Origin: Dactylosporangium sp. AC04546
Lineage (GTDB): Bacteria > Actinomycetota > Actinomycetes > Mycobacteriales > Micromonosporaceae
Direction of reading: 5' to 3'
Length of the DNA stretch: 64,000 bases
Assembly: GCF_022095675.1 (NCBI RefSeq)
Contig: NZ_JAHYSG010000058.1
Span: 12,749-76,748 of the forward strand
Shown one piece after another: positions 23,147 to 50,167 of this stretch. Below the pieces are notes generated by a model. It saw only the letters and a list, made by a program, of their open reading frames with translations, searched no databases and was not told the DNA's origin. Positions within the stretch are counted from its first letter, which is position 1. Each line of letters opens with the position of its first letter. The position numbers and the translations under genes are program-made.

Positions 23147-23180
23147 GTGCGGTGAGCGCACGTTTGTGCGTTTACGATCT
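23147..23180. promoter_or_regulatory. IclR-type tandem operator, site A (livH promoter)
   Basis: The first unit, GTGCG-GTGAG-CGCAC (23147-23161), has perfect arms. A second half-unit GTGCG begins exactly 19 bp later (23166-23170). The same arrangement occurs at 41203, 48516 and 50134. Its position directly upstream of the livH start fits a repressor site. Confidence 0.65.
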
Positions 23181-23370
23181 CGAAACAATGGCAAGTGACG
23201 CTCGTCATGTCAACAACGGATTGAGAGGGTGGGCGTTCGAGCGCGCCGACCACGACCCGGCGCACCTCGCGGCGCCGCCGGGTCATGCGGGTATGAGCGC
23301 TCACAGCAACGCGCGGAGGCGCCCCTCCCTGAGGGGTGGAGGCGCTACAGCAGCGCCAGCTTCACGCTGA

Positions 23371-24393
23371 GCCTTCCCAACCGATCCACGACCCCGCGCG
23401 GCGCCCTGCGCGGCCCTGCTCACCCTGGCCGATGCCCTCACCCGCGCCGGTGGCCCGGACACCGTCCGCGGCCTGATAGCGCCGCTGGCCGCCGCCCTGC
23501 CGGCCGGCGGCCATGACTGGGTCAAGCAGTTCCTGCACGGCCCAGGGCTCTGCTCACGAGGGCTACAAACCGCGCTCGGGCCCGCTGTCGGCGCCATGCA
23601 CATCGTGGCCCGCACCGGGATCGCCTCGTTCACCGCGAAGCGGCGCTACCCGCGGCAGCGCCCGGTGAGCTTCGGCCTGCACCATGTTTCCCCAACGCAT
23701 CCCGACAGCTGGATCGACGCGTACTTCGCCGCGTTCGCCGACCTGCCGCCACGATCGCTGCACCACGCCATCGCCGCTCACCTCGCCCGGATGGTGCTCG
23801 GCGGAACACCCACCAACACCAACCTGTCCGAAGCTGTCCTCCCGCTGGGCATGTCCCGCTGGGCCACCAGCTACGCGCTGGCACACGTGAGCGACCGGCT
23901 CGCCGACAGCGGCCGGCAGGCCGCTTTCGACCAGGCCATCGACGCACTGGCCGGACACCTCGACACCACCCGGCACGAGTTGACCGACTACGGCCAACGC
24001 CGCCGCGCCCTCGCCGACTGGTCCATTCCCGCCACCGACTGGGCCCACATCACCGACGGTCTGCCCACCCGACTGCAGACCTCGACATGGCGATGGCGCC
24101 ACCTGCCCTGGGACGACCGGGAACGGGTACTCTCCTCGGTCTGGATCTGGTACCACGCCACCCACGGCGACCGCGCCTACAACGCCCACATGCGCCGCGA
24201 CTGGACCGACCGCGGCCGACTCAAACCCACCGCCAAGTACGTCAGCAACCGCTGGCGCGCACTCACCACCCGCGACGGTCTCTACCAGGCGCTGTTCGAC
24301 CGCCTGAACACCCATCTGTCCGGCATCGCGCGGACGATCGACTCAGGCGGAATCGCGGGGTGGGCGGTGGATCCCGTCCCAGCGCCGCCGTGA
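23371..24393 (+). pseudogene. 5'-truncated protein of unknown family
   Basis: The frame is open from 23371 (after a TGA at 23368) to TGA 24391, but the first ATG is at 23596. Protein-like sequence exists upstream of that ATG (LLTLADALTRAGGPDTVRGL, WVKQFLHGPGL), so a longer N-terminus has been lost. The remaining 340 residues are helical and rich in Trp, His and Arg: HPDSWIDAYFAAFADLPPRS, ADWSIPATDWAHITDGLPTR, RWRHLPWDDRERVLSSVWIW, YVSNRWRAL. I do not recognise it. The layout of helices with conserved Trp recalls accessory proteins of transposons, but this is only an impression. It faces the frameshifted methyltransferase. Confidence 0.4.
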
Positions 24394-24441
24394 GCGGAAA
24401 ATGCGGGTCCTGGGTGAGTACGGTTGACTGTCGACCCGCCG

Positions 24442-25258
24442 TCAGCCGGTCGGCTTGCTGACGAGATCGCAGGCGAAGCTGACCTGATCGATGAGGGCGC
24501 CGTTGTGGAGATGGGATTCAAGACGGTTCGCTAGATCGGCTTCGAATGCGGGAGCTCGGTCACCGAATACGGGAGCGGCCAGGAACGAGGTCGAGTACAC
24601 GAACCCAGCCAGTTCGGCCACGGTCCAGCGGTGCTCGACCTGGAACTCGTAGTGGCCGATCAACTCAAAGCCTGCATCGGCCAGAACGGCTAGGTCCGGC
24701 CTGGCCCGACGGGCGCCTTCCCAGTCTTGCGGGAGCCGGTCGCAGACATTCAGCTGGCTTCGCCACTCGTCAAGAACCGCGTTCAGCGCCGTCTGCCAGC
24801 CGGCGTCGCCGGTCCACGGGGAACTCGACCAGCACAGCGCCAGGTGCCCGCCCGGGCACAACCATTCGAGCGCGCGCCGAGCCACCTCGTCCCGGCGAAG
24901 CCGTTGGAATGCATTGCCGATGGTGATCAGTTCGAAACTCGCCGACTCGGCAGACAGTTCCTCAGCACTTGAGGTGATCGCCCTCACGACGTGCCCGCCG
25001 CGAGCCGCTTTGGCTGTCACGAGACGGACCATGTCCAGTTCCTGATCGACGGCCCAGATCTCGGCGAAGGAATCCTGCAGTGCGAAGGCGAGCTGGCCGG
25101 TTCCGCACGCCAGGTCCAGCAGCCGCCCTCGCCGCGATGGTTGCACACGGCTGAGCAGGTCTTCGGTCAGGACCTGCGGGTACGCGAGCCGGAAACCGGT
25201 CGTAAGACTCTGCCGTGCCGCGGTACAGATTGACGGCGAAGTTCGGCTCGGTCTGCAT
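24442..25258 (-). pseudogene. Class I SAM methyltransferase, frameshifted near its N-terminus
   Basis: ATG 25258 starts MQTEPNFAVNLYRGTAESYDRF. The frame then breaks. FRLAYPQVLTEDLLSRVQPS and GRLLDLACGTGQLAFALQD (SAM motif I) continue in another frame to the stop at 24442, with EIWAVDQELDMVRL as the acidic strand and ELITIGNAFQRL as motif II. One T too many in CGGTTTCCGG accounts for it. The repaired length is about 271 residues, normal for UbiE/Methyltransf_11-type enzymes. The substrate is unknown, and no neighbour suggests one. Confidence 0.7.
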
Positions 25259-25431
25259 GGCATGGATCGTCTCAGATGCCCCGGACTCAATGACAGTCGC
25301 CGGTCGCTGGAGTGCCAGCCAGCGGTGGTCGGGACATCCGCCAGCTTCGACGCGTACCGCGTTCGCTCATTCTGAGCGACACAACACACTGAGCGACGTC
25401 CAGCGGAACCTTCGAAGCACCAAAGAGCGGC

Positions 25432-25924: not shown

Positions 25925-26013
25925 TATCTCCACTGGCGAACATGTCTGTGAACAAGCACATGGCGCGGCCCTGCCCTTTCGCGATGCACCCAGACGGACT
26001 ACAGTGCCGTCCT

Positions 26014-26037
26014 GTACCTAAGCGAGCGCTTAGGTAC
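26014..26037. promoter_or_regulatory. TetR-type operator 1 (before SDR 26130)
   Basis: Perfect 11-bp arms GTACCTAAGCG and CGCTTAGGTAC are separated by AG. The 16-bp core CTAAGCGAGCGCTTAG (26018-26033) recurs with 12/16 identities at 26946 and 32643. Length and symmetry fit a TetR dimer-of-dimers or single-dimer site. The SDR start codon is 93 bp downstream. Confidence 0.75.
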
Positions 26038-26129
26038 GGGACAGCGTGCAAATGCCGATGGCCACCGATGGCGGCCGCCTGACGTTTCACGCCCGTCCCC
26101 CAACTCAGCGCCGTCGAGGGACTTGTCTG

Positions 26130-33900: not shown

Positions 33901-33909
33901 GAGCCTGCC

Positions 33910-34926: not shown

Positions 34927-34943
34927 CCAGGCACTAGGCCTGG
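34927..34943. terminator. Small hairpin at the convergent junction
   Basis: CCAGGC (34927-34932) and GCCTGG (34938-34943) form a 6-bp stem with a 5-nt loop covering the TAG stop of the minus-strand SDR. There is no T-run. It is weak and possibly only partly effective. The 250 bp between 34675 and 34926 shows no gene. Confidence 0.3.
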
Positions 34944-35764
34944 CCGCCTACTCGATCGCTGGAGGGCGGTATCCCGTTGACGCCGAGAATCAAGCCTGGC
35001 GTGGCCGTCGCGCCACCGTCGACGAGGAGCGTCTGACCGGAGATGTAGCTGGCGAGGTCGCTGACGAGAAACGCCACGGCGTCAGCGATCTCCGCCGGAA
35101 CACCCATACGTCGCAGTGGGATGCTACCGGTGAAGTCGACCTGCTGCTGGCCCGGCTCGGGTGCTGTCGCCGGAGTGTTGATGCGTCCGGGGGCGATGCA
35201 GTTCACGCGAATGCCGAAGGGCCCGTACTCATAGGCGAGGGTCCGCGTCAACGATGAGATGCCGGCCTTCGCGGCGCCGTAGGCGGCGGCCAGCGGTGAA
35301 CTCAACACGCCTGCAATGGAGCCGACATGCACGATCGTCCCGCCGCCGGACTGCACCATCTCGCCAAGCGCGCTCCGAGTGAGTTGGAAGACGTACGTCA
35401 GGTTCATGGCTTGAATCAGCGACCACTCCTCGTCGGTCACCTCGTGAGTCAACCGGTAGGGGGCGAGCGCCCAGGAACCGCCGGCGACGTTCACGAGGAT
35501 GTCGACGCTGCCGAGTTGCTCGGTTGCCGACGGGACGATCTGATCAACCTGGCTGGCATCGAGCAGATTCGCGATAATCGGCACCGCCGTGCCGCCGGCT
35601 TGCCGGACTGCCGCTACAGTGCCCGCCGCGCGATCCGCGCGGGAGTCGACGACAGCCACCGCCGCACCCGCCTCGGCGAGACGCAGCGCGACCGCTTCGC
35701 CGATACCGCGCCCGGCACCGGCGACCACAGCGACGCGGCCGGCTAGGGACAACGAAATCGGCAT
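34934..35764 (-). CDS. Short-chain dehydrogenase/reductase with variant cofactor motif
   Basis: The 276-residue SDR overlaps the upstream gene's stop. The cofactor loop reads VAGAGRGIG (14-22), with Ala in place of the usual Thr. The next motif is VNVAGG instead of NNAG. Catalytic Ser149, Tyr162 and Lys166 (AAYGAAKAGIS) are present, and the C-terminus extends about 25 residues beyond TLLVDGG. It belongs to the bicupin-led operon on the minus strand. The two motif changes suggest a specialised member, perhaps acting on a cyclic ketone or diketone. Confidence 0.85.
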   Translation of the reverse strand: MPISLSLAGRVAVVAGAGRGIGEAVALRLAEAGAAVAVVDSRADRAAGTVAAVRQAGGTAVPIIANLLDASQVDQIVPSATEQLGSVDILVNVAGGSWALAPYRLTHEVTDEEWSLIQAMNLTYVFQLTRSALGEMVQSGGGTIVHVGSIAGVLSSPLAAAYGAAKAGISSLTRTLAYEYGPFGIRVNCIAPGRINTPATAPEPGQQQVDFTGSIPLRRMGVPAEIADAVAFLVSDLASYISGQTLLVDGGATATPGLILGVNGIPPSSDRVGGQA

Positions 35765-38504: not shown

Positions 38505-38515
38505 TGCTGCTCCTC

Positions 38516-39349
38516 TTACGGGTAGTTGGCGTTGTAGGCCGCCGCCACGTCGACGGTGCATCCCGAGATGAAGCGGGACTCCTCGGCCGCGAGGTGGAGC
38601 ACCTCGTGAGAGATGTCCGTCGGCTCGACCCAGGTCGTGGGCATGGGATTCATCTGCGTGAGCCGCGCCTCCATGTCCTCAAGGCCGGGAGCGTCCTTCT
38701 CGGGCACGAACACCTTGTAGACCTCGTCGTGGTGCATCATCGGCGTGTTCACAGCACCGGGTAGCACCGCGTTGCAGGTGATCATGTACGGCGCGGCCTC
38801 CAGCGCGACGGCCTTCGTCAGGCCGATCAGCGCCCACTTCGAGGCGGCGTAGTGGCTCAGGTTCGGTACGCCGCGCCGGGCGGCCTGCGACGAGGTAACG
38901 ACGATCCGCCCGTACTTTCGCTCCATCATGTGCGGCAGTACGGCGCGGATGCTGTTGGCGACGCCGGTGAGGTTGACGTCGATCGTGTCCTGCCACGCCT
39001 GGTCGTCCATGTCAACGAGCTGGTGGTACGTGACGACGCCGGCATTGGCCGCCAAGATGTCGATGTGACCGAAGGCCGCGATGCCGTCCGCCACGACGGC
39101 ACGCATCGCGTCGATGCTGCGTACATCCGCCTCGACCACGAGGGCCTTCCGCTCCAGGCCCTCGACCGCAGAGGCGGTCTCACGCAACTCCGCGGAGGTT
39201 CCCAATGGGTACGGCACCGAATCGACCGGCTTGGGCACGTCGACGAGGATGACGTCTGCACCGTTCTTGGCGAACTGGATCGCATGCTCACGGCCCTGGC
39301 CATGGGCGGCGCCGGTGACAAGTGCTACCCGTCCGGTGAAATTTGGCAT
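38516..39349 (-). CDS. Mycofactocin-coupled SDR, copy 1
   Basis: The 277-residue SDR begins at ATG 39349. Landmarks are TGAAHGQGR (12-20), the insertion PVDSVPYPLGTSAELRETAS after the second strand, NAGVV, Ser153/154, Tyr167 and Lys171, GAVNTPMMHHDEVY and TTWVEPTDISHEVL. The GQGR turn, the YPLGT insertion and the N-T-P-M/W-V-E-P elements define the subfamily that keeps NAD bound and passes electrons to mycofactocin. It oxidises a secondary alcohol. The mft locus lies 12 kb to the right. Copy 2 is at 42160-42987. Confidence 0.9.
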   Translation of the reverse strand: MPNFTGRVALVTGAAHGQGREHAIQFAKNGADVILVDVPKPVDSVPYPLGTSAELRETASAVEGLERKALVVEADVRSIDAMRAVVADGIAAFGHIDILAANAGVVTYHQLVDMDDQAWQDTIDVNLTGVANSIRAVLPHMMERKYGRIVVTSSQAARRGVPNLSHYAASKWALIGLTKAVALEAAPYMITCNAVLPGAVNTPMMHHDEVYKVFVPEKDAPGLEDMEARLTQMNPMPTTWVEPTDISHEVLHLAAEESRFISGCTVDVAAAYNANYP

Positions 39350-39357
39350 GGCGCCGA

Positions 39358-40335
39358 CTACTCCATCCTTGTCACGGTGTGCTGAATGAGGCCGAACAGC
39401 GAGGTGCCGTCGTCGGCGATCGCTTCGATGGTGACGGTGTCTCCGGCGGACAGGAAGGGCGTCACGGCAGCCCCGCTCTCCATGATTTCGACACCGCGCT
39501 TCTCCGCGATGCAGCCGAAGCCGCGCTCCGTGTCGCCGTTGGAAATGGTCCCAGTGCCGATCATCGACCCGGCGATAAGCGGTCGCGTCCTGGTGAACTC
39601 CCCGATGATCTGCGGAAGGCCGAAGGAGAAATCGCGATCGGCCCGAGGAGCGCCGTACAGCGTTCCGTTGACGCTGCACTGCAGCGCTGCCCGCAGGAAG
39701 GAATTCTGCCACGCGGTACCGAGGGTGGCTGGCGTGACGAGGAACGGAGCGAAGCCTCGGCCGGGCTTCGATCCGTATGTGCCTGTCCCTTGACGGCGTT
39801 CCTCCACCAGTAGACGTCGATATGTGACGTCGTTGGTGATGCCGACCAGCTTGATGTGTTCGGGCGCCTGTGCTGCTGTCGTTCCCTGTGGAGCATCACC
39901 GGTGACGACAAAGACGGTCGGCTCATAGTCGAGTTCCCACGTCTCGTCAGGTAACGGCACCTCGGCGCGGGGTGGCCAGTTCGGCGCGCCGCCGCTCTGA
40001 TAGACGATAGGGCGCTCGCGGTGTCGGTCAGGCAGCGCTTCGCCTCGACCGCCGCGAATCCGTTCCATGTGCGAGAGGTACGAACTGCCCTCCGCCCAGT
40101 GGTAAACCCGGGGCAGTGGCGCCGCGAAGACCGCGCCGTCAACGGGGCTCCCCAGCGTCGGGTCGTCGAGCGACTCGAAGACGCCCTCCAGCAACGTCAC
40201 GGATTCCGCCCAGGTGTCAAGCGCCTGCTGCATGGTCCGTGGGCCTTGCGGCGGGACCAGAAATCGCGTCCTGTCGCTGCTGACGACCACCAGCGTTCCG
40301 TCTAGGCCGCCACCGGCCAACGAGGCAAGGATCAT
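39358..40335 (-). CDS. Fumarylacetoacetase (FAH) family hydrolase
   Basis: The 325-residue protein has the FAH C-terminal domain: LDYEPTVFVVTGDAP, KLVGITNDVTYRRLLVEE, GRGFAPFLVTPATLGTAW, QIIGEFTRTRPLIAGSMIGT and FLSAGDTVTIEAIAD. The N-terminal part (LVPPQGPRTMQQALDTWAES) is the cap region of two-domain members. It uses Mg/Ca to cleave the C-C bond of 1,3-diketones or to decarboxylate beta-keto acids. ATG 40335 overlaps the bicupin stop. Placed with acetoacetate-CoA ligase, it could generate acetoacetate. The family has also been linked to hydratase activity, so cleavage is an inference. Confidence 0.85.
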   Translation of the reverse strand: MILASLAGGGLDGTLVVVSSDRTRFLVPPQGPRTMQQALDTWAESVTLLEGVFESLDDPTLGSPVDGAVFAAPLPRVYHWAEGSSYLSHMERIRGGRGEALPDRHRERPIVYQSGGAPNWPPRAEVPLPDETWELDYEPTVFVVTGDAPQGTTAAQAPEHIKLVGITNDVTYRRLLVEERRQGTGTYGSKPGRGFAPFLVTPATLGTAWQNSFLRAALQCSVNGTLYGAPRADRDFSFGLPQIIGEFTRTRPLIAGSMIGTGTISNGDTERGFGCIAEKRGVEIMESGAAVTPFLSAGDTVTIEAIADDGTSLFGLIQHTVTRME

Positions 40336-41180
40336 CTCGCTGCGGTGGCCACGGTGCTGTATTCGGCCGGTACGCAGAACTCAAGAGTCATGTAGTCAGG
40401 CGAGGCGTCGAACGCGTTGTGAATCGAACCGCGCGACAGCGTCATGAGGTCGCCCGCGAATACTCGCTGGTTCGGCTCCCCGGGGCGGGCGACGTCGAGC
40501 CATCCGCGGATCGGCAGGAAGAACTGCGCCATCGAGTGGGAGTGCTCTCCTGTGCCGCCAGGCGGCGAGGGCTCGATCTCATCGAGCTTGATGATGTGGA
40601 TGTGCACGCGCCCGTCGGTCGGGATGCGGGTGCCCAAGTCGCGGTACAGCGACCACCGGCGGGGGCCGTCGCCGCGCACGTACGCGTCGGGCCGGTCGAA
40701 GGTGTAGACGCCCTTCAGATGGGCGAACTCGGCGGCGCGCTCCGGCTTGGGAGCGTCTTTGCCGGTGACCGTGCCGTAGTCGGAGGGGCCGAAAACCTCG
40801 ACGCCTTCGAAGTCGTCGGACACCGCGCTGATCCGGTAGCGCCAGTAGGGCGGCTGGTAGGCGGAGGCACCCTTGTCGAGGACGAGGTCCTGGCCGTCCT
40901 CGGTCCGGACAGAGATCGAGCCGTTGAAGACGAAGAACCACTGAAAGTCGGCGTCGTGGAACTGCCAGTCCGTGCTGGCATCCCCCTCTTTGCCCGTGTA
41001 CCGGACGTGGCGGCCTACCAAGGCCCCGTCTGTGTTGGCGGCCAGGTGAAGGTCGCGGTACTCCAGTCCGGCGACCGGACCCTGCTCCCAGGTGCCCCCG
41101 TCCTTGCGGACCAGCTCGGTCTTGATGTCCAGGGGGTTGTCCACGTCCCAGCCGGAGCGCCAGGTCGTCGCGTGGGTCAT
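40332..41180 (-). CDS. Bicupin protein
   Basis: The 282-residue protein begins at ATG 41180. It carries two cupin barrels: FHDADFQWFFVFNGSISVRT followed by LVLDKGASAYQPPYW in the first, and GEHSHSMAQFFLPIRGWLDV, then VFAGDLMTLSRGSIHNAF in the second. Only the second barrel keeps HxH-type ligands (GEHSHS...H), so one metal site is likely. Such bicupins act as dioxygenases, isomerases or sensors. No substrate can be read from the sequence. It is the first gene of the six-gene minus-strand operon, directly behind the tandem IclR-type operator. Confidence 0.75.
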   Translation of the reverse strand: MTHATTWRSGWDVDNPLDIKTELVRKDGGTWEQGPVAGLEYRDLHLAANTDGALVGRHVRYTGKEGDASTDWQFHDADFQWFFVFNGSISVRTEDGQDLVLDKGASAYQPPYWRYRISAVSDDFEGVEVFGPSDYGTVTGKDAPKPERAAEFAHLKGVYTFDRPDAYVRGDGPRRWSLYRDLGTRIPTDGRVHIHIIKLDEIEPSPPGGTGEHSHSMAQFFLPIRGWLDVARPGEPNQRVFAGDLMTLSRGSIHNAFDASPDYMTLEFCVPAEYSTVATAAR

Positions 41181-41202: not shown

Positions 41203-41236
41203 GTGCGTCTAGCGCTCATATGAGCGCTGTGCGAAC
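41203..41236. promoter_or_regulatory. IclR-type tandem operator, site B, with 18-bp palindrome
   Basis: The units are GTGCG-TCTAG-CGCTC (41203-41217) and GAGCG-CTGTG-CGAAC (41222-41236), 19 bp apart. Between their arms is the perfect palindrome AGCGCTCATATGAGCGCT (41211-41228). The site lies between the divergent bicupin (start 23 nt away) and iclR (136 nt away) genes, so both promoters can be controlled. Confidence 0.7.
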
Positions 41237-41371: not shown

Positions 41372-42142
41372 ATGTCCGAGGTAGCTGAAGGTCCGTATGT
41401 CCACGCGCTCGAACGCGGCCTCGCCGTCCTCCGGTGCTTCCACGACGACCGGGACCAGCTGACGATCTCGGACGTCGCGCGAGAGGCAGGGATGGATCGG
41501 GCGGTGGCTCGTCGCTTCCTGCACACGTTGGTGGCACTTGGCTATCTCGGCACGGTGAACTCCCGTTTCTATGTGCGCCCGAGAGTGCTCGAACTGGCGC
41601 GCCCGTACCTCGACTCAGTCACGAACGTCGACGTGATCCAGCCGCACCTCGAGCAGCTCACGAAAGAGGTCGGCGAGACGTCGATGGCCTTCGTTCTGGA
41701 TGGCTACGAGATCGTCTTCGTCGCTGGTGTTCAGGCCAAACGACTGGTGTCGGTCCACGTCGTTCTCGGCACGCGGGTTCCGGCGTACTGCAGCCCGCCA
41801 GGCAGGGTGCTGCTGGGCTCGCTCTCCCCCGACCAACTCGACGACTACTTCCGTCATGTCGAGCTGGTGCAACGCACTCCGCACACGGTCACCTCCGAGA
41901 ATGCGTTGCGGGAGGAGATCAAGAAAGTCGCCGAACAGGGCTACTCCCTCGTCGACCAGGAGCTGGAGCCACAGCTGCGCACCGTCGCCGTTCCCATTCG
42001 GGACCGCGAGGGCAAGATCGTCGCGGCAGCCTCCATCGGAACGACGCTGGACGTCGCGATGGAGCATCTCGGCGGCGAACTGCTGAGCAAGTTGAAGACA
42101 GCCGCCGCCGAGATCGAGCGAGACCTGGCGTTGATCCGCTGA
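41372..42142 (+). CDS. IclR-family regulator
   Basis: The 256-residue protein has TAGGAGG before ATG 41372. The winged helix is YVHALERGLAVLRCF, then LTISDVAREAGMDRAVARRF and TLVALGYL. The IclR effector domain includes ETSMAFVLDGYEIVFVAGVQ, HVVLGTRVPAYCSPPGRVLL and YSLVDQELEPQLRTVAVPIR, the PcaR/PobR pattern for aromatic and other acid ligands. Its own upstream region carries tandem operator site B. The same element stands before three other island operons, so it is the probable master regulator of the right and left blocks. Confidence 0.9.
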   Translation: MSEVAEGPYVHALERGLAVLRCFHDDRDQLTISDVAREAGMDRAVARRFLHTLVALGYLGTVNSRFYVRPRVLELARPYLDSVTNVDVIQPHLEQLTKEVGETSMAFVLDGYEIVFVAGVQAKRLVSVHVVLGTRVPAYCSPPGRVLLGSLSPDQLDDYFRHVELVQRTPHTVTSENALREEIKKVAEQGYSLVDQELEPQLRTVAVPIRDREGKIVAAASIGTTLDVAMEHLGGELLSKLKTAAAEIERDLALIR

Positions 42143-42159: not shown

Positions 42160-42987
42160 TCAGGCGTTGAACGCCGCCGCGACGTCCAGCATGGCGCCGG
42201 TGACGTACCGGGCCTCGTCGGCGACGAGATACAGCACCCCTGCCGAGATGTCCTCCGGCTGAATCCACTCGGTCGGCATCGGATTGAGCCGGCGGAGCAC
42301 CGCCTCCATATCCTCGAGCGTCGGGTTGTCCAGGTCCGGACGGAACGTCCGGTAGACCTCATCGTTCTTCATCATCGGCGTCTCCACGCCGCCCGGGAGG
42401 ATCGCGTTGCAGGTGATCCCGCCGAAGCGCGCCACTTCCAGCGCGACAGTACGAACCAGGCCTGACAGCCCCCATTTGGCAGAGCAGTAGTGCGCCAAGT
42501 TCGGCATGCCCCTTCGCCCGGCCTGCGACGATGTCACGACGATCCGGCCGTAGGAGCGCTCGATCATGTGCGGCAACACGGCTCGGATGGTGTTGGCCGT
42601 CCCGGTCAGATTGACGTCAATCATGTCGTGCCACATTTGGTCCGACATCGTGGCCAGTGGGCTGTACGAGGCGATGCCCGCGTTCGCCAGCAGGATATCG
42701 ATCTGGCCGAACCTCGCGATGGTGTCCGACACGACGCGTCGCATGTCCGCCATGGACCGGGTGTCGCCCTGCAGAGCGATCGCCGGGATGTTCTCCGCCT
42801 GGACCAGCTTCACCGTCTCATCCAGCTCGGCCTCGGTACCGAGCGGGTAGCTGACGGAGGCGATCGGCTTCGGGGCGTCGACCAGGGCGATCCTCGCCCC
42901 CTCCCGCGCGAGGGCAATGGCGTGAGACCTGCCCTGGCCCCGCGCGCCGCCGGTGATGAGGGCGACCTTGTTCTCCAACTTCCCCAT
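42160..42987 (-). CDS. Mycofactocin-coupled SDR, copy 2
   Basis: The 275-residue SDR has AAGGAG before the ATG. GGARGQGRSHA (13-23), the YPLGTEAELDETVK insertion (47-60), NAGIA, Ser153, Tyr167 and Lys171, GGVETPMMKNDEVYRTF and TEWIQPEDISAGVL give the same signature as copy 1, with about the same length. Two separate mycofactocin-coupled alcohol dehydrogenases in one island suggest two alcohol oxidations or two stereoisomers. It is the last gene of the ABC/serine-hydrolase operon and converges on iclR with a 17-bp gap. Confidence 0.9.
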   Translation of the reverse strand: MGKLENKVALITGGARGQGRSHAIALAREGARIALVDAPKPIASVSYPLGTEAELDETVKLVQAENIPAIALQGDTRSMADMRRVVSDTIARFGQIDILLANAGIASYSPLATMSDQMWHDMIDVNLTGTANTIRAVLPHMIERSYGRIVVTSSQAGRRGMPNLAHYCSAKWGLSGLVRTVALEVARFGGITCNAILPGGVETPMMKNDEVYRTFRPDLDNPTLEDMEAVLRRLNPMPTEWIQPEDISAGVLYLVADEARYVTGAMLDVAAAFNA

Positions 42988-43036
42988 GATGATGCGCTCC
43001 TTACGAGGTGTGAAACAACGTTGTGCCGCCTCGGCT

Positions 43037-44209
43037 CTAGTCGAGGGCGGCGTAGACCGAGCGGATGAGCGGCTCGGCCCGGTAACCGCCGACGATGCCG
43101 TTGTACGTGCCGAGAACCCCGGGCTCCATCCGGTTCATGATGTAGGCGAAGGTCAGCCCGCGGTCGATGTCGTTGATGACCATGGAGCCTCCCCAGCCCG
43201 CCCAGAAGCAGACTCGACTGTCGGGCAGGTACGGGAAGTGCTCCGGGTACGACAAGGCGTAACCGATGCCCCAGCGGATCGGCAGCCCGAGGTAGAGGTC
43301 GACACCTTTGGACTGCTCCTCGAAAATCCGGTCGATGGTCGCTTGGGAGAGCAACCGAACCCCGTGCGCCTCGCCGCCGTTCGAGACCACCGACTGGATC
43401 CTCGCCAGCGAACGGGCATTGCCGTGGCCGTTGCCCGCCGCGCAGAACTCCGAGCGCCGCCATCGGACGTCCCAGCAGGTTGCGGGGTCGGTCGCGAGAG
43501 CGGCGATGGTCAGCTTGTAGCCCACGCTGTTCTTGTCCTCGAAGGCGAGGTCCGCGTCGAAGGCCGGGCCGGGAGGTGGGAGGATCAACGGGGAGATCCG
43601 GTAGTCATCCCACTCTGGCAGGCCGATGCTGAAGTCGGCGCCGAGCGGAGCGGCGATCTCGGCGGCGACGAACTTGCCGAGACTAAGACCGGTCACCTTC
43701 AGCACGACGCCATGGATGAGGTGTCCGATGCTCAAGCCGTGGTAGCCGCCGGCGGTGCCGGGTTCCCACCACGGAGCCATGGCGGCCAGCTTGGCCAGGG
43801 AGATGTCCGGGTCGTAGATGTCGTCCATCGTCACCGGCATGTCCCAGCCGGCCACGCCGGAGGTGTGGGAGAGGATCTGCTTGACTAAGACGTTTTCCTT
43901 ACCGTTTTCCGCGAATTCGGGCCAGTACTTCGCTACCGGAGCATCCAGATCGACCAGACCCCGGTCGACCAGCATGAGCAGAGCGAGTACGGCGACCGTC
44001 TTCGTATTCGACCAGCAGTTGACGATCGTGTTTCTTTCCCACGCCCTGGTGTGTGCCTGGTCCATCCAGCCGCCCCAGGCGTCGATGACCGGCTCGCCCT
44101 TCACGAAAAGGGCGACCGAGGCGCCGACATCGTCGCCTGCGGCGAGGTGCTCGTCGAGGACGTCGATCACGCGCTGGAACTTCTTGTCCCACGTTCCTTC
44201 GACAGTCAT
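43037..44209 (-). CDS. Class-C beta-lactamase-fold serine hydrolase (EstB-like)
   Basis: The 390-residue cytoplasmic protein lacks a signal peptide. The nucleophile motif is SNTK in NCWSNTKTVAVLALL near residue 70. The second motif is Tyr-based (GYHGLSIGHLI), followed by ILSHTSG and the final WGIGYALSYPE and FWAGWGGSMVINDIDRG region (the third, HxG-like box, is replaced by WGG). This matches the carboxylesterase/EstB branch rather than a secreted beta-lactamase. It probably removes an ester from the imported compound before oxidation by the downstream mycofactocin-coupled SDR. It lies 7 bp after the SnoaL gene. Confidence 0.87.
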   Translation of the reverse strand: MTVEGTWDKKFQRVIDVLDEHLAAGDDVGASVALFVKGEPVIDAWGGWMDQAHTRAWERNTIVNCWSNTKTVAVLALLMLVDRGLVDLDAPVAKYWPEFAENGKENVLVKQILSHTSGVAGWDMPVTMDDIYDPDISLAKLAAMAPWWEPGTAGGYHGLSIGHLIHGVVLKVTGLSLGKFVAAEIAAPLGADFSIGLPEWDDYRISPLILPPPGPAFDADLAFEDKNSVGYKLTIAALATDPATCWDVRWRRSEFCAAGNGHGNARSLARIQSVVSNGGEAHGVRLLSQATIDRIFEEQSKGVDLYLGLPIRWGIGYALSYPEHFPYLPDSRVCFWAGWGGSMVINDIDRGLTFAYIMNRMEPGVLGTYNGIVGGYRAEPLIRSVYAALD

Positions 44210-44216
44210 GGCCTGC

Positions 44217-44762
44217 CTACCTTTCAGTCTCGTTCTTCGGTGCGTTGTTGCCTGCTTGGTGGCCGTCCCGACCCCACCAATAGACCGGGTCGGACCGGTC
44301 ACGTCGGGACATGACCCAGTCCTCGGGGGAGAGATCCTGCACATCTACCTGCAGCGACTCGTCGAAGACGACCACGCGGTCGGCGATCGCCCAGCGCCCG
44401 TCACGGCGTTCAAAGCGGTCCACGTAACGGCAGCGGCTCACGCGTTCGGCCTGCCGCGCCTGGCCGTCTTCGGGCCGCATGCGCAGGAATGCGATGCAGT
44501 ACGACTCGACGAAGGCCAGGTTGTCCCCGTCGAACTCGATGATGACGTTGGTGACGAAGTGCTGCGCGGAGTCGATGACCTGGTGGCGGCTGCGGATGTC
44601 CTCGACCAGGCCTACTGCCGTACCCGTATAGGAGCCATGCGTATCGATGGCGTCATCGAAATAGCATGCCGCGATGCCCTCGTAGTCCAGTCGATCGACT
44701 GAACGTGCATAGCGGTACAAGCACTCGTGAATAGCCAGCCGGTCGGCGAGGCGCTCCACCAT
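44217..44762 (-). CDS. SnoaL-like / NTF2-fold protein, copy 3
   Basis: The 181-residue protein reads MVERLADRLAIHECLYRYAR, then SVDRLDYEGIAACYFDDAID, VTNVIIEFDGDNLAFVESYC, CRYVDRFERRDGRWAIADRV and SRRDRSDPVYWWGRDG. The sequence and order of motifs are almost those of the 15181-15699 protein, which identifies a duplicated module in the two blocks. The function is a cyclase, isomerase or dehydratase on a ring or polyketide-like intermediate. It sits between the ABC permease and the serine hydrolase genes. Confidence 0.88.
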   Translation of the reverse strand: MVERLADRLAIHECLYRYARSVDRLDYEGIAACYFDDAIDTHGSYTGTAVGLVEDIRSRHQVIDSAQHFVTNVIIEFDGDNLAFVESYCIAFLRMRPEDGQARQAERVSRCRYVDRFERRDGRWAIADRVVVFDESLQVDVQDLSPEDWVMSRRDRSDPVYWWGRDGHQAGNNAPKNETER

Positions 44763-44792
44763 GTTGTTCCTCCGATTACTCGGTTGGCGCCG

Positions 44793-45782
44793 CTACCGGC
44801 GACGGGTGAGGCGGACAGAGAGGGCGACGGCCAGGATCAGGGCGCAGCCGTTGAAGAGACTGGAGATCCACGACGGAGCCCCGGCGAGTTGCAGCCCGTA
44901 GATGCCGGTCGCGAGGAGCACGCAGGCAACGAGGGTGCCGAGCACGTTCACTCGGCCGTTGTTGCGGACCTGCGTCGCACCCAGTAGCACCGTGGAAAAT
45001 GCAGGCAGCAGATACGGCGTGCCGATATCCGGTCCACCCGTCCCGAGTTGCGCGGAGAGCACGACGCCGGCGCAGGAGGCGATGAGCCCGGAGGCCACCA
45101 GCGAGCCGAAGGAGATCAAGTTCACCCGGACACCGGCGAGACGGGCCGCTTCGGAGTTGCCGCCGATGCCGTAGAGGTACCGCCCTACTGTGGTCGCCTC
45201 CGTGACGTACCAGATGATGATGGCGACGACGACCGCGTACCACACCGGGTAGGCCAGGCCGAGGAGGGTGCCCTGGCCCAGCTTGGTGAAGCTGTGGGCG
45301 TTGTCATTCGTCCCCACCAGCTGGTTGCCGTCGGTGATCCAGTACGCGATGGCGGCGAGGACGCTGGACATACCCAGGGTGGCGATGAAGGAGCTGACCT
45401 GCAGTCCCACGATCACCACGCCGTTGACGACGCCGATCACCAGGCCCACGCCGAAGGTGGCGAGGATCGCCAGCACGACTGGTGTCCCGCCTTCGATCAG
45501 CTTGAGCGAGAGAACCACGGCAACTCCCAGCGTGGCCGCCACGGAGAGATCGAAGATGCCGGCGGCCAGGGGCAGGATCAGCGCGAGCGCCGCCATGAAA
45601 GTGACGGCCTGGTTCTGGCTCACTGCCTTCAACGTGGTGGCAGTCAGGAAGGTGTCCGGCAGAGCCGCCCCGAAGATCACCACCAGCACTGCAAGGACGA
45701 GGACCCCGCTGAACTTATCCAAGGCGAGTTTCTCGGCAAACGATCGCTGCAGTGGCTTGGCCCCAGCCACTGACGTCGTCAT
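44793..45782 (-). CDS. Ribose-type ABC permease (BPD_transp_2)
   Basis: The 329-residue integral membrane protein begins at ATG 45782, overlapping the ATPase stop as ATGA. It has about nine helices and the family loop NSEAARLAGVRVNLISFGSL, with QVSSFIATLGMSSVLAAIAY and GTPYLLPAFSTVLLGATQV. It forms the channel for the binding protein and ATPase encoded upstream. Related permeases carry pentoses, autoinducer-2, polyols and also glycosides or hydroxylated acids. The neighbouring genes argue against simple sugar use. Confidence 0.9.
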   Translation of the reverse strand: MTTSVAGAKPLQRSFAEKLALDKFSGVLVLAVLVVIFGAALPDTFLTATTLKAVSQNQAVTFMAALALILPLAAGIFDLSVAATLGVAVVLSLKLIEGGTPVVLAILATFGVGLVIGVVNGVVIVGLQVSSFIATLGMSSVLAAIAYWITDGNQLVGTNDNAHSFTKLGQGTLLGLAYPVWYAVVVAIIIWYVTEATTVGRYLYGIGGNSEAARLAGVRVNLISFGSLVASGLIASCAGVVLSAQLGTGGPDIGTPYLLPAFSTVLLGATQVRNNGRVNVLGTLVACVLLATGIYGLQLAGAPSWISSLFNGCALILAVALSVRLTRRR

Positions 45783-47356
45783 GCCCCGGCCTCTTCTGTC
45801 TTTCGGGCCTCGGGCGTGGCGGCCAGGCACGCCGCAGTGATCGCAGCGGCTTCGACGGGTCCAGGGAGCTCACTTCCGACACGTCCTCCGGAGAAGACGA
45901 GTATGCGCGTACACAACAACGCCAGTTCCTCACTATCCGTCGAGCAGACGACCACCGAGCAGCCTGATGAGGCTGCTGCACGGATTCGGTCGTGGATGTC
46001 TTGTTTGGCCCCGACGTCAACGCCTTGAGTGGGTTCGTCGAGGATCAGTACTCGTGGCTCCAGGCGGAGCCACCTCGCGAGAATGACCTTCTGGGCGTTG
46101 CCGCCGGAAAGTTGCGACATCAACGCGCGCGGCTCGCGCGGACGTACGTCGAGTTCGCCCAGCCATCCCTGGACGGTGCGCATCTCCTCTCGACGACGCA
46201 GCCAGCCCTTCCGGCTGAAGTCCTTCAGACGCGCCAGCGTGAGGTTCTCGGCCACAGTGTGGCCGTGGACCACGGCGACTCGCGGCCGGTTCGCCGGCAC
46301 CATGGCGATCCCTGCCCCGATGCTCAGGTCTGGCCGGCCAGAAGGCACGAAGTGGCCGTCGACGACGACGTCGCCAGTCCGCGGAAGGCCGCCGAAGATG
46401 AGCGATGCTGCCGCCTCACGGCCCGAGCCGGTGATGCCGGCGATGCCGAGGATCTCGCCCTTTCGCACGTCGGCACTGAGCTTGTGAACCGTGGCGCCGG
46501 AGATCGACTTCAGCTCCAGGACCACGGAGCGCTCGTCGACGACGGCGGTCTGTGTTGAGGACTGGACCGGGTGGCCCACGATCAGCTCGATGAGGGTGCT
46601 CCGATCGAGGCCGGCGATCGGCCTCGTGGTGATCAGACGGCCGCCACGCAACACGGTGACCGAGTCCGCGAGTTCGAACACCTCGTCCAAGTGATGGGAG
46701 ATGAACAGGACCGCAACGCCGTTGTCGCGGACCCTGCGGATGAGGTCGAAAAGCCGCTCTACCTCGGGGCCGGGCAGGTTGGCTGTCGGTTCGTCCAGCA
46801 CCAACACTTGCGGCGTTGAGTGGTGCTCGGCCACCGCGCGGGCGACCGCGACCGCTGTCCTTTCGCTGGCCTGCAGCTTCCCGGTCGGGACAGTGACGTC
46901 GACGTCATAGCCGAGTTCGGCGAGGTTCTGCCGAGCTTCGCGGCGCCGGTCAGTCCAGTTGACCGGCCGGCCGCGGCCACAGCCGAAGCCTCTGCCCAGA
47001 CCGAGGTTCTCGACGACATTGAGCGAGTCGACGAGGGCCAAGTCCTGGTGCACGAATCGTAGTCCGGCATGCTCCGCCTCACCGGCGTGAGTAGTGGTGA
47101 CCGGGTTCCCAGCCACCACCACCTCAGTGCCCGCATCGGGTTCGTAGTAGCCGGCGAGGATCTTCACCAGCGTGCTCTTGCCTGAGCCGTTCTCACCAAC
47201 GATGGCCCGGATCTCTCCGGGAAGCACCGCTAGGCTCACGTCCTCCAGCACTCGCACGCCGCCAAAGGTCTTGCTGGCGGAGTGCACCTGCAGCGCTGGA
47301 GTGACCTGATCCTTGAAGAGCCCGGCATCCTCGTCGGATGACGACTCAACCAACAT
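45779..47356 (-). CDS. Ribose-type double ABC ATPase
   Basis: The 525-residue cytoplasmic protein has two ATPase halves. The N-terminal half has GENGSGKST (54-62), LQASERTAVAVARAVAE as the signature and VLVLDEPTANLPGPEVERLF as Walker B. The C-terminal half has the usual degenerate loop GITGSGREAA, the good signature LMSQLSGGNAQKVILARWLR and RVLILDEPTQGVDVGAKQDI. The architecture is that of RbsA. The start overlaps the binding-protein stop by 11 bp. It energises the permease of 44793-45782. Confidence 0.92.
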   Translation of the reverse strand: MLVESSSDEDAGLFKDQVTPALQVHSASKTFGGVRVLEDVSLAVLPGEIRAIVGENGSGKSTLVKILAGYYEPDAGTEVVVAGNPVTTTHAGEAEHAGLRFVHQDLALVDSLNVVENLGLGRGFGCGRGRPVNWTDRRREARQNLAELGYDVDVTVPTGKLQASERTAVAVARAVAEHHSTPQVLVLDEPTANLPGPEVERLFDLIRRVRDNGVAVLFISHHLDEVFELADSVTVLRGGRLITTRPIAGLDRSTLIELIVGHPVQSSTQTAVVDERSVVLELKSISGATVHKLSADVRKGEILGIAGITGSGREAAASLIFGGLPRTGDVVVDGHFVPSGRPDLSIGAGIAMVPANRPRVAVVHGHTVAENLTLARLKDFSRKGWLRRREEMRTVQGWLGELDVRPREPRALMSQLSGGNAQKVILARWLRLEPRVLILDEPTQGVDVGAKQDIHDRIRAAASSGCSVVVCSTDSEELALLCTRILVFSGGRVGSELPGPVEAAAITAACLAATPEARKTEEAGA

Positions 47357-48497
47357 GCCACGCCCTCTTGAACTGATCGCGGAATCCGGCCACGGCGACG
47401 TACTGGCCTCCCTCGACGGCGATTGTGTTCACGTTCGCCTTGGTGATCATCTGGCCAGGAAGTGGTACCGCGACCGCGGCAGCGACATCGTCTCCGGCGT
47501 AGTGGCGCGCCAGGGCGTCGATGGTGCGCCACCCCATCATTTCAACCGGATAGCCCGCCCATGCTCTCTCGTCACCGGACTTGAGGGCCTCCAGGTTAGG
47601 GGCTGAAGGAGACTCACCAATGATGTTGATGCCCGAGATGCCGGCGGTCTTGAGCGCAGTGCTCACACCCAGTGCAGTGTCGCCGTTGCCGAAGACAGCC
47701 CACTTGGCCTGCGGGTTGCGCTGGAAGTAGGCGACGACGTTGGCCGGTGTCTTCGTGCCGACGTCCGCAAGCTGCTGGTTTTGGTCGTCGACCGTGCAGC
47801 CCGGGCACCAAGCTTTGACGGCGGCGATGAAGGCGCCGGTGAACGCCTTCAGGATCGGGAACGCATTGACATTGAAGAGGCCAGCTCGGCCCTTGCCGTC
47901 CGACTCGGTGATGAAGTAAGCAGCCACCAGCTTGGCGTAGAGCACGATCTGGTCGGAGCCCGCCACGTTCGCCAGAACTCCGCCAACCGGGCCTTCGGCG
48001 CCGACGTTCTGGATCACGGTGATGCCCTTACGCTTCGCCTCGGCGATCTGGGACGTGAATACCGTCGAGTCAGCGGTGCCACAGATGCAGATCGCGTCGG
48101 GGGTCTGCTGCAGAGCAGCCTCGAAGGCCTTGATTGCATCGGCCGGCGAGGAACCCGCGTTGATCGTGCTGAAGTCCCAACCGAGGGCCGCGGAGCCTTC
48201 GCGCATGCCGGTAGCCACCCGCGCGGCGACCGGCTGCGGGGTGACCAGCAGCATGACGACCTTCTTGCCCTTCGGCGGGGCCACCTTGAGGTCGGAGACG
48301 CCGATGTTGGTCGGGTTCTGTGCGTTCGCTGCGATGTAGTCCGCGGCTTCCTTCAGGCCCAGGTTCCCGGCCGCAGTGCTGTTCTCGCCGCCCCCAGTGG
48401 CCCCTGGCGAGCCACCGGACGAACTGCACGCGGAGATCAGCAGGCACGCAGTGGCGAGAAACGCCACGAGCGCGAGGCGGCGAGACTCCGTTGTCAT
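47346..48497 (-). CDS. Ribose-type ABC substrate-binding lipoprotein
   Basis: The 383-residue precursor begins at ATG 48497 (GGGAG upstream). The signal LALVAFLATACLLISAC ends at lipobox Cys24. The Peripla_BP_4 fold is read from VVMLLVTPQPVAARVATGMR, DAICICGTADSTVFTSQIAE, GITVIQNVGAEGPVGG and WAVFGNGDTALGVSTALKTA. It captures the extracellular ligand. The operator at 48516 lies 19 nt from the start codon, so ligand uptake is set by the IclR-type regulator. The specific ligand is not deducible. Confidence 0.9.
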   Translation of the reverse strand: MTTESRRLALVAFLATACLLISACSSSGGSPGATGGGENSTAAGNLGLKEAADYIAANAQNPTNIGVSDLKVAPPKGKKVVMLLVTPQPVAARVATGMREGSAALGWDFSTINAGSSPADAIKAFEAALQQTPDAICICGTADSTVFTSQIAEAKRKGITVIQNVGAEGPVGGVLANVAGSDQIVLYAKLVAAYFITESDGKGRAGLFNVNAFPILKAFTGAFIAAVKAWCPGCTVDDQNQQLADVGTKTPANVVAYFQRNPQAKWAVFGNGDTALGVSTALKTAGISGINIIGESPSAPNLEALKSGDERAWAGYPVEMMGWRTIDALARHYAGDDVAAAVAVPLPGQMITKANVNTIAVEGGQYVAVAGFRDQFKRAWHVG

Positions 48498-48515
48498 GCT
48501 GCTCCCTAGGATTGT

Positions 48516-48549
48516 GTGCGCTGACCGCACAATCATGCGTTGGCCGCCC
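48516..48549. promoter_or_regulatory. IclR-type tandem operator, site C
   Basis: GTGCG-CTGAC-CGCAC (48516-48530) has perfect arms. A degenerate second unit, ATGCG-TTGGC-CGCCC, begins 19 bp later (48535-48549). A wider dyad GATTGTG/CACAATC (48510-48516 and 48528-48534) surrounds the first unit. It is 19 nt from the binding-protein start. Confidence 0.7.
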
Positions 48550-49011
48550 AACTCTGACAGGAGCCGGGTGTGGTGTCAATCACGTTGAGGACACGTTTCG
48601 CAGCCGTGAACGCCGACGGACGCGGCAGCGGCTCCGCCACCGCACCACAAGTCCGCGAGTGCCGCACTCCGCCCCGAGATGCTCCCTCGCCAGGGCGAAT
48701 ACCTGTTCTCCGCTCGTGACGCCGAAGAACTCGCGGCCGAGCGCGATCGTCCTCAGCGGTCAAGGCGCCGGCGACGGCGCCTTGGCAAAGACGCAGACTG
48801 GCGAGCACCGGTCAGCCATGTGAGCGGCCCTGAACGCCGAGTTTGCTCTCGGCCCCATGCTGGCGGGCGGTCTGGGATCTGGACTGGTGGGCAGGCCAGC
48901 TCCCCGCAGTTCGGTTCATCCTGAGCAAGGTGAAGTCGTCCGACTCCTCAACGCCGTCCGGAAGGAGCCGGACAACGCATGCAGGGCTGGTCGACGAAAG
49001 CTCGAGTGTCC
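48550..49011. other. Intergenic stretch without recognisable gene
   Basis: There is no protein-like frame with a start and ribosome site on either strand. A GGCGCC-GGCGAC-GGCGCC-type dyad occurs near 48765-48782. The segment separates the binding-protein promoter from the 3' end of the second SnoaL/Ddn fusion. Confidence 0.45.
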
Positions 49012-49953
49012 TCACAGGGGTTGGAGCAGCACGACGGGGATCCGTCGAGCCGTCTTCAACTGGTACTCGGCGTAGGTCGGGAACGCCTCGACGGCGCGAT
49101 CCCACCAGGTGTCACGCTCGGCGCCGGTGAGCACCCGCGTCAGGTAACGCCGCTTGGTCGCGCCGTCCTGCAATTCGACCAGCGGCTGATGCAGAAGGTT
49201 CCCGTACCCATCCGGGTTCTCGGGCCTGCCGCCATATGAGGCGATCGCGACGTACTGACCGTCGTGTTCGACGCGTATTAGAGGGCTCTTGCGGACCTTC
49301 CCACTCTTCCGTCCGATCGTGGCAAGCACCACGATCGGACGATCCTGCATTGTGTTCCCCTCGGCTCCGTTCGAGCGTTCAAACAGCTCGACCTGCTCGC
49401 GAGCGAAGACCCGCGGAGTGGGTTCGTACTCCTCCTCGAAGACTGCGAGCGGGTCGTCGACACCCTGCAACGAGTGTCGGAACAGCAGTCGGGCCGCCGG
49501 GGATCCGTTGAGCAGCTGGTTGGTGCGACGACGGACCCGCCACCCCTCGGGCCGACGTTCCAGGGCCCATCTGTTGGCGGTCAGACGGCGGATCATGAAA
49601 CCGTGTGGGCCGTTGGCGATGAGGATCTGGTAAGTAATCGCCACGGCCGTGTCGCCTTGCAAGGTGATCCGTGGCGGGGAGACCTGGTGGGACGAGCCGA
49701 CGCGCACGTACTCCTGATGCGTCTCGCTGTAGAGCATGTCGCGGATCTGTTGCCGGTCCCCCAACTCCCAGCCGTCGATTTCGTACATGCCGTCCTCGAC
49801 CCAGATTTCCCCTGCCAGGTCGATGGAGTTGCTGTCCACCGAGGGGCCATAGGAAGCGAGCAAGTGCTGAATCTCGCCGATGTCGGTCAGGCGTGTGACG
49901 GCTCGCTCGAGTTCAGCGACCCGCTGCTCCAGGCCCTGGCTGCTGTCTCCCAC
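49012..49953 (-). CDS. SnoaL domain fused to Ddn-type F420 nitroreductase-family domain, copy 2
   Basis: The 313-residue protein begins at GTG 49953 after GAGGGGAACC. It has the same length and domain order as copy 1: coiled start (LEQRVAELERAVTRL), LLASYGPSVDSNSIDLAGEI, VEDGMYEIDGWE, RWALERRPEGWRVRRRTNQL, then the Ddn part NTMQDRPIVVLATIGRKSGK, VRKSPLIRVEHDGQYVAIAS and FPTYAEYQLKTARRIPVVLL. The F420-binding nitroreductase-type fold suggests hydride transfer from F420H2. It is monocistronic, preceded by its own tandem operator (site D) about 180 nt upstream. This indicates co-control with the rest of the island. Confidence 0.8.
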   Translation of the reverse strand: MGDSSQGLEQRVAELERAVTRLTDIGEIQHLLASYGPSVDSNSIDLAGEIWVEDGMYEIDGWELGDRQQIRDMLYSETHQEYVRVGSSHQVSPPRITLQGDTAVAITYQILIANGPHGFMIRRLTANRWALERRPEGWRVRRRTNQLLNGSPAARLLFRHSLQGVDDPLAVFEEEYEPTPRVFAREQVELFERSNGAEGNTMQDRPIVVLATIGRKSGKVRKSPLIRVEHDGQYVAIASYGGRPENPDGYGNLLHQPLVELQDGATKRRYLTRVLTGAERDTWWDRAVEAFPTYAEYQLKTARRIPVVLLQPL

Positions 49954-50133
49954 TCCGGTTCCCCTCAGGCCTCGGTCATTTCGATCAACGGGCACCCTGG
50001 GCCGCCAGCAATGAACGCGGTACGACCGCCGAGTCCCGACATCCGCTTACTTCTCCAATCGCTGTTGCGATGGCAGCGCGTGCGCGGGTGCGATCACCAA
50101 CCGGCAAGGTTGAACCAGCAGCGCAACTTGGGT

Positions 50134-50167
50134 GTGCGGCCCGCGCTCTGATGTGCGCTCTGCGAAC
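50134..50167. promoter_or_regulatory. IclR-type tandem operator, site D
   Basis: GTGCG-GCCCG-CGCTC (50134-50148) and GTGCG-CTCTG-CGAAC (50153-50167) lie exactly 19 bp apart. The arm variants CGCTC and CGAAC occur in the same order as in site B. It stands upstream of the second SnoaL/Ddn gene. The rest of 49954-50340 shows no gene. Confidence 0.65.

What the first reader, a model, noticed from the sequence alone, without database searches (positions are those of the whole stretch)
23147..50167. One tandem operator class upstream of four operons defines an IclR regulon across 27 kb
Four sites share the pattern GTGCG-N5-CGCNC followed 19 bp later by a second NTGCG-like unit: 23147 (livH), 41203 (bicupin/iclR), 48516 (ribose-type binding protein) and 50134 (SnoaL/Ddn copy 2). 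Sites B and D use the same arm variants (CGCTC first, CGAAC second) in the same order. Sites A, B and C begin 18, 23 and 19 nt from the start codon they precede. Seen directly: sequences and spacing. Established: IclR regulators often bind repeated short dyads near their own promoter. Inference: the IclR protein at 41372-42142 controls both ABC importers, the mycofactocin-coupled SDRs and the F420 enzymes together.
Basis: partly seen in the sequence, partly recalled or inferred. Interest (0 to 1): 0.8.

Follow-up and report, generated by a model that had tools for sequence, protein, structure and literature searches.

The report
Local IclR operator set, four promoters
Four promoters in one catabolic gene neighbourhood carry the same rare two-part DNA switch of the kind that aromatic-degradation regulators of the IclR family use, so one nearby regulator probably controls them together; this is a new example of a known kind of control.

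Summary
Sites at 23147 (A), 41203 (B), 48516 (C) and 50134 (D) share GTGCG-N5-CGCWC plus a third box 19 bp on; B and D have four full boxes. The dyad alone is not enriched in the 13.02-Mb genome (272 strand-hits against 342 for the reversed control). The strict tandem is confined to this cluster: exact three-box sites are A, C, D only, exact four-box sites B, C, D only. In Acrocarpospora pleiomorpha, which holds most of the stretch 25918-50222 at 91-98% DNA identity, B, C and D persist; changes hit 2 of 60 box positions against 10 of 42 spacer positions (Fisher p = 0.003). The divergent IclR protein is nearest PcaR/PcaU/PobR but under that cut-off. That group's operators are GTNCG-N5-6-CGNAC, and IclR sites often form tandems 18-22 nt apart (PMC8222616). 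Most likely two IclR dimers bind side by side near the start codon and repress the operons until a pathway metabolite releases them. Binding is inferred, not shown. Site A is least secure: no close match to its livH was found in A. pleiomorpha (best 41%). New member of a known kind.

The parts
23147..23180 (+). Site A: GTGCG GTGAG CGCAC GTTT GTGCG TTTAC GATCT; perfect 15-bp dyad plus third box, fourth box absent; 18 nt upstream of the livH-like start (TTG 23129)
41203..41236 (+). Site B: GTGCG TCTAG CGCTC ATAT GAGCG CTGTG CGAAC; four boxes; between bicupin start (41180, minus strand) and iclR start (41372)
   Evidence: boxes unchanged in A. pleiomorpha
48516..48549 (+). Site C: GTGCG CTGAC CGCAC AATC ATGCG TTGGC CGCCC; 19 nt upstream of the sugar-type binding protein start (48497)
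   Evidence: 1 box change in A. pleiomorpha
50134..50167 (+). Site D: GTGCG GCCCG CGCTC TGAT GTGCG CTCTG CGAAC; 92 nt upstream of an SDR-like stub ORF (ATG 50042), about 180 nt upstream of SnoaL/Ddn (GTG about 49953)
   Evidence: 1 box change in A. pleiomorpha
41372..42142 (+). IclR-family regulator, 256 aa, nearest PcaR/PcaU/PobR; likely reads the four sites
34934..41180 (-). Operon B, head to tail: bicupin 40332-41180, FAA-hydrolase family 39358-40335, mycofactocin-coupled SDR about 38516-39370, acetoacetate-CoA ligase 36531-38561, SDR 35764-36534, SDR 34934-35764
   Evidence: operon inferred from overlaps
42160..48497 (-). Operon C: Peripla_BP_4 binding protein, sugar-type ABC ATPase, permease, SnoaL, beta-lactamase-fold esterase, mycofactocin-coupled SDR
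   Evidence: operon inferred from overlaps and short gaps
49012..49953 (-). SnoaL-F420H2 quinone reductase (Ddn-like) fusion, copy 2 (operon D)
   Evidence: start inferred
16795..23129 (-). Operon A: LivH/UrtB-like permease, permease-ATPase fusion, ABC ATPase, Peripla_BP_6, SnoaL, SnoaL-Ddn copy 1; a further SnoaL gene 15181-15813 follows after a gap of about 1 kb
   Evidence: operon inferred

Best explanation
The sites are tandem operators of the IclR protein at 41372-42142, a relative of PcaR/PcaU/PobR. Each operator is an alternating box array (forward, N5, reverse, N4, forward, N5, reverse), that is two dyads whose centres are 19 bp apart, about two helical turns, so that two dimers can bind the same face of the DNA side by side. 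In A-C the near dyad is centred 25-30 nt before the start codon. A protein there would cover the transcription or translation start region, so the regulator is most likely a repressor that releases its DNA on binding a pathway metabolite, and co-induces two importers, mycofactocin-coupled SDRs, a bicupin/FAA-hydrolase pair and F420-type enzymes. Shown: the sites, their rarity, register, constraint of B-D, gene order and protein family. Inferred: binding by this protein, repression, the effector, and autoregulation of iclR (site B is 136-169 nt upstream of its start).
For: Exact three-box and four-box sites genome-wide fall only in this cluster; 0.010 expected per 64 kb; leave-one-out ranking. 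In A. pleiomorpha 2 of 60 box positions changed against 10 of 42 spacer positions, p = 0.003 (a mask shifted by -1 ties, the other shifts up to 6 nt are worse). The protein scores best against PcaR/PcaU/PobR and has R43, R47 and R48, invariant in an alignment of 15, the spacing of PobR Arg56/60/61 named in PMC8222616 (equivalence by spacing, not by alignment). Published: GTNCG-N5-6-CGNAC operators, three-box arrays in PcaU/PobR/HmgR, tandems 18-22 nt apart, commonest site centre -22 nt (PMC8222616: abstract, sections 4, 13, 14 and passages). Homologues carry like boxes by their own start: paralogue L005 (37%) three arrays with N5/N4 spacing, Nonomuraea L028 (45%) GTTCG-N5-CGCAC with CGAAC in box-4 register, Neorhizobium L029 (41%) GTTCG-N5-CGCAC with GTGCG 18 nt before it. 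IclR and bicupin homologues share 6 contig lengths (6 of 49 IclR hits, all among the best 14; 18 bicupin hits), so the pair tends to stay together.
Against: No binding or expression data. Of 28 IclR-like matches in the genome I held DNA for 8; besides L001 and L005, six (L002, L003, L004, L006, L007, L008) have no such dyad within 340 nt upstream, nor have the 46% Rhodococcus and Dietzia homologues L026 and L027, which lie inside operons; L009 has only a loose N6 match. In B and D box 2 is CGCTC, one letter off CGNAC. In A. pleiomorpha B, C and D each depart by one letter from the strict three-box pattern, while that genome's one exact match lies elsewhere inside an ORF, and its total at up to one mismatch, 24, is near the control's 17. 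Site A lacks box 4. D is far from its gene. PcaU and PobR are activators (recalled), so the direction of control is uncertain. The A. pleiomorpha test rests on 12 changes at three sites, and the box mask came from the window sites.
Confidence: 0.77

Rival explanations
1. A narrower form of the above: the sites are operators of the IclR protein, but mainly B and C (next to the gene) matter, D being a relic of a decayed SDR operon and A bound weakly or by another IclR paralogue.
For: IclR regulators generally control their own gene and one or two adjacent operons (PMC8222616 section 4). A lacks box 4, and A. pleiomorpha has no close livH match; the liv stretch found no match in the A. pleiomorpha DNA fetched. 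An SDR-like stub sits between D and the SnoaL/Ddn gene, longer by about 145 bp in A. pleiomorpha.
Against: A is an exact three-box match, one of 3 in 13 Mb, placed 18 nt from a start codon like B and C. D keeps 19 of 20 box positions in A. pleiomorpha.
Confidence: 0.3
2. The sites are bound by another regulator, for example the mycofactocin regulator MftR encoded at 51282-52115, or a second IclR paralogue.
For: MftR lies about 1.1 kb from site D and the cluster holds mycofactocin-coupled SDRs. The genome has 28 IclR-like matches at E <= 0.001.
Against: The MftR operator in mycobacteria is T-N2-GGCA-N5-TGCC-N2-A in a 27-bp site (PMC8728441, passages), unlike these boxes. Site B stands upstream of the IclR gene itself. 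Exact strict sites occur nowhere else in the genome. Of the 7 paralogues examined, the one with clear arrays at its own promoter uses mostly GTCCG boxes.
Confidence: 0.1
3. Chance or composition: GC-rich sequence throws up GTGCG and CGC words and the reader picked matching ones.
For: The bare dyad is not enriched (272 against 342 control), and loose versions of the tandem give no excess.
Against: Exact strict tandems are confined to this cluster, 0.010 expected per 64 kb, same orientation to the minus-strand genes in 4 of 4, and boxes conserved over spacers in a second genome.
Confidence: 0.03

Closest known systems
PcaU and PobR of Acinetobacter (three-box IclR operators, GTTCG/GTCCG boxes)
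   Same: GTNCG-N5-CGNAC dyad with an extra external direct half-site (PMC8222616); best-scoring family model of the protein
   Different: Boxes here are GTGCG; two sites have four boxes; position by the start codon suggests repression; the genes are not a recognised pca/pob set
Actinobacterial PcaR and CatR (GTTCGC-N3-GCGAAC; GTACG-N5-CGTAC)
   Same: IclR family and dyad geometry; 46%-identical plasmid homologues in Rhodococcus and Dietzia lie in pca gene runs
   Different: This protein sits with a bicupin, mycofactocin SDRs and ABC importers and falls under the curated PcaR/PcaU/PobR cut-off
Tandem IclR sites with centres 18-22 nt apart (94 orthologous groups, PMC8222616)
   Same: 19 nt here; published mainly 19-21
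   Different: Nothing in the spacing; only the box sequence and the genes

Membership tests
IclR family of regulators | IclR helix-turn-helix and IclR C-terminal effector domain | tested here: met
   PF09339 54.7 bits (cut-off 22), PF01614 122.2 bits (cut-off 24)
PcaR/PcaU/PobR subfamily (TIGR02431) | Score above the curated cut-off of 284.75 bits | tested here: not met
   262.4 bits, best of the 8 models listed but under the cut-off
PcaR/PcaU/PobR subfamily (TIGR02431) | Control of beta-ketoadipate pathway genes | tested here: inconclusive
   No protocatechuate or catechol pathway family appeared among the scanned genes of the four operons; distant targets were not examined
Group 1 IclR operators | GTNCG-N5-6-CGNAC dyad | tested here: met
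   A and C exactly; B and D with CGCTC in place of CGNAC in the near dyad
Tandem IclR operators | Two dyads, centres 18-22 nt apart | tested here: met
   19 bp in B and D with both dyads; C has a weak second dyad; A has three boxes only, so for A not met in full
Tandem IclR operators | Bound by two dimers of the IclR protein | not testable with these tools
   needs footprinting
MftR operator | T-N2-GGCA-N5-TGCC-N2-A | tested here: not met
   by eye, none of the four sites has this core (sequences; motif)

The most novel reading that the evidence does not exclude
A compact regulon with its own GTGCG box code moved between actinomycetes of different families as a block (regulator, bicupin operon, sugar-type importer operon, decayed SDR/F420 operon), and in this genome a liv-type importer operon that is not part of the shared block was wired into it through operator A. 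One regulator would then tie two unrelated importer classes to mycofactocin and F420 redox enzymes for one unknown substrate.
Probability: 0.35. Interest if true: 0.5.

Novelty: new member of a known kind. Interest (0 to 1): 0.34.

Why it matters
It gives an orphan catabolic neighbourhood one testable control switch and says which genes probably act together: two importers, a bicupin with an FAA-hydrolase-type partner, an acetoacetate-CoA ligase, mycofactocin-coupled SDRs and SnoaL-F420 enzymes. That narrows the search for its substrate. It is also an example in which the bare dyad is uninformative and the strict tandem is decisive when calling IclR sites in a GC-rich genome.

Tried and rejected
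Bare dyad as evidence: rejected, no excess over control. MftR as binder: rejected on motif. Extra sites: a matrix scan of the whole 76.7-kb contig showed no fifth site; leaving out the sites, their reverse readings and a 14.3-bit reading that overlaps site B, the best place scores 13.0 bits (4115) against 25.7-29.8 for the sites. In the plus-strand SDR/acyl-CoA dehydrogenase stretch 26046-34674 none of the top 22 scored above 10.8 bits. Orthologues in relatives: 1 of 354 genomes of the window's family (its own; E <= 1e-75), 1 of 394 class genomes drawn evenly from a larger group (its own; E <= 1e-80), 1 of 341 genomes of A. pleiomorpha's family (A. pleiomorpha; E <= 1e-70); in the rows shown only 5-7 candidates a genome were scored. 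In the genus, 2 of 7 at E <= 1e-60, the other being a 48% homologue. A last search for the bicupin in 59 genomes of one guessed genus found 0 and proves nothing. The scan of genome contigs gave 2 loci, A. pleiomorpha and a 27% relative. One exact three-box match elsewhere in A. pleiomorpha lies inside a 279-aa ORF that I take for a sulfurtransferase (name recalled). A promoter scan of 41100-41400 found none and says little in actinomycetes. Homologues in the Protein Data Bank were listed but no structure was predicted.

Paper searches: 'Acrocarpospora' with 'IclR' 0 papers; 'mycofactocin' with 'IclR' 1 paper, on Rhodococcus opacus 1CP, listing only. In these two searches I saw nothing in print on this locus; most subscription journals are not held. 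PMC12285266 was seen in passages and not used. Other papers were seen only as listings.
Full report
What was claimed. Four GTGCG-N5-CGCNC sites with a second unit 19 bp on, upstream of four operons, taken as an IclR regulon.

The observation. The four sites are at the stated places and are the only places matching GTGCG-N5-CGCWC in the window. In register they read: A GTGCG GTGAG CGCAC GTTT GTGCG TTTAC GATCT; B GTGCG TCTAG CGCTC ATAT GAGCG CTGTG CGAAC; C GTGCG CTGAC CGCAC AATC ATGCG TTGGC CGCCC; D GTGCG GCCCG CGCTC TGAT GTGCG CTCTG CGAAC. B and D have two whole dyads, A has three boxes, C three and a weak fourth. One correction: at +19 site B has GAGCG, not NTGCG. All four have the same orientation towards the minus-strand genes they precede.

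More than chance? The bare dyad is not: 272 strand-hits genome-wide against 342 for the reversed control, and 6 strand-hits in the window against a simulated mean of 2.33 and maximum of 10. A three-box form with a free gap of 3-6 is not either, genome-wide: 7 hits against 10, though 3 of the 7 are A, C and D. The strict tandem is confined to this cluster. Exact TGTGCGN5CGCNCN5TGCG occurs 3 times in 13,024,294 bases, at A, C and D; B is one of 24 places with one mismatch. Exact GTGCGN5CGCWCN4RNGCGN5CGNNC occurs 3 times, at B, C and D. No separate control for exact matches is given by those calls; with 2 or 3 mismatches allowed the totals do not exceed the control (448 against 485; 2413 against 2630). 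Simulated sequence with the window's dinucleotide make-up gives 0.010 three-box sites per 64 kb in 300 runs, with a pattern fitted to the four sites. Leave-one-out scans of the contig rank each left-out site behind only the other sites and their reverse readings.

A second genome. Acrocarpospora pleiomorpha NBRC 16267 holds the IclR gene at 98% protein identity. It matches window 25918-29949 and 34855-50222 at about 96-98% DNA identity, dropping to 91% in the last 220 bases around site D; 29950-34854 is not matched there. Sites B, C and D are there. Of 12 substitutions, 2 fall on 60 box positions and 10 on 42 spacer positions (p = 0.003); sliding the mask by -1 ties this, other shifts up to 6 nt do worse. 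By the strict three-box pattern each of the three departs by one letter in that genome, and its single exact match is elsewhere, inside an ORF. The livH-like gene behind site A has no close match in that genome (best 41%). The two organisms fall in different families, as each family search found only its own member (1 of 354; 1 of 341). Genes between 25900 and 50222 (19 chosen by hand, four of them in the unmatched gap) have lower third-position GC than 20 flanking genes (mean 0.803 against 0.871). The block therefore looks laterally moved. The window's genome carries 11.5% estimated contamination, so the contig's ownership is not beyond doubt. This hints at the genus but is indirect, and why that record would hold a 98% bicupin without a 98% IclR I cannot tell.

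The regulator. Pfam places it in the IclR family. NCBIfam's best model is PcaR/PcaU/PobR at 262.4 bits, under its 284.75 cut-off, so I call it a relative, not a member. The 46% homologues on a Rhodococcus and a Dietzia plasmid follow pcaG, a lyase gene and pcaD. Of 49 IclR homologues and 18 bicupin homologues, 6 IclR ones (all among the best 14) share an exact contig length with a bicupin one, and in three of these the organism names agree as far as shown. The regulator-bicupin pairing thus looks conserved, though it is read from contig lengths.

The operator class in print. Suvorova and Gelfand (PMC8222616; abstract, sections 4, 13, 14 and passages seen) give GTNCG-N5-6-CGNAC for a group with PcaR, PcaU, PobR and CatR, three-box arrays for PcaU, PobR and HmgR, tandems 18-22 nt apart in 94 orthologous groups, the commonest site centre at -22 nt, and general control of the own gene and one or two adjacent operons. 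The present sites fit these apart from the number of operons and box 2 of B and D. Three homologues of 37-45% identity show like boxes by their own start: L005, L028, L029. Six other IclR loci of the own genome (8 of 28 matches were held as DNA, L001 and L005 included) and the mid-operon L026 and L027 showed none within 340 nt upstream, and L009 only a loose one.

Mechanism. The near dyad of A-C is centred 25-30 nt before the start codon, and the far boxes two turns upstream. I infer side-by-side binding of two dimers and repression. The effector is unknown; the genes of operon B (bicupin, FAA-hydrolase family, mycofactocin-coupled SDR, acetoacetate-CoA ligase, two SDRs) suggest breakdown of a cyclic or aromatic compound ending in acetoacetate. 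That is inference.

Site D. Between D and the SnoaL/Ddn gene lies a short ORF (ATG 50042) with an SDR-like beginning; A. pleiomorpha has about 145 bp more of it. D was probably the operator of an SDR gene now mostly lost.

Verdict. The reading that one regulator ties two importers together, with A wired in outside the moved block, is the part worth testing. On checking, confidence in the best explanation was set from 0.78 to 0.77 because the A. pleiomorpha strict-pattern result had been left out.

Noticed in passing
window 51282-57892: A mycofactocin biosynthesis cluster (MftR, radical-SAM maturase, MftE, a coupled SDR, MftD) lies beside the block; A. pleiomorpha has a 79%-identical maturase stretch about 15 kb beyond the end of its block.
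   Followed up: partly
window 25918-50222: Stretch shared in two parts at about 96-98% DNA identity (91% at the site D end) with Acrocarpospora pleiomorpha, of a different family, with lower third-position GC than the flanks; looks like recent lateral transfer.
   Followed up: partly
window 49965-50042, minus strand; L010 about 19330-19558: Stub of an SDR-like gene between site D and the SnoaL/Ddn gene; the stretch is about 145 bp longer in A. pleiomorpha.
   Followed up: partly
window 41066-41080: A perfect GTCCG-N5-CGGAC palindrome inside the bicupin gene, also present in A. pleiomorpha; perhaps coding chance, not examined.
   Followed up: no
L005 1195-1218, 1363-1386, 1458-1481: An IclR paralogue (37%) in the same genome has three alternating three-box arrays within about 300 nt upstream of its gene, mostly GTCCG boxes.
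   Followed up: partly
window 16795-17883 and 49012-49953: Two SnoaL-F420H2 quinone reductase fusions behind two of the four operators.
   Followed up: no
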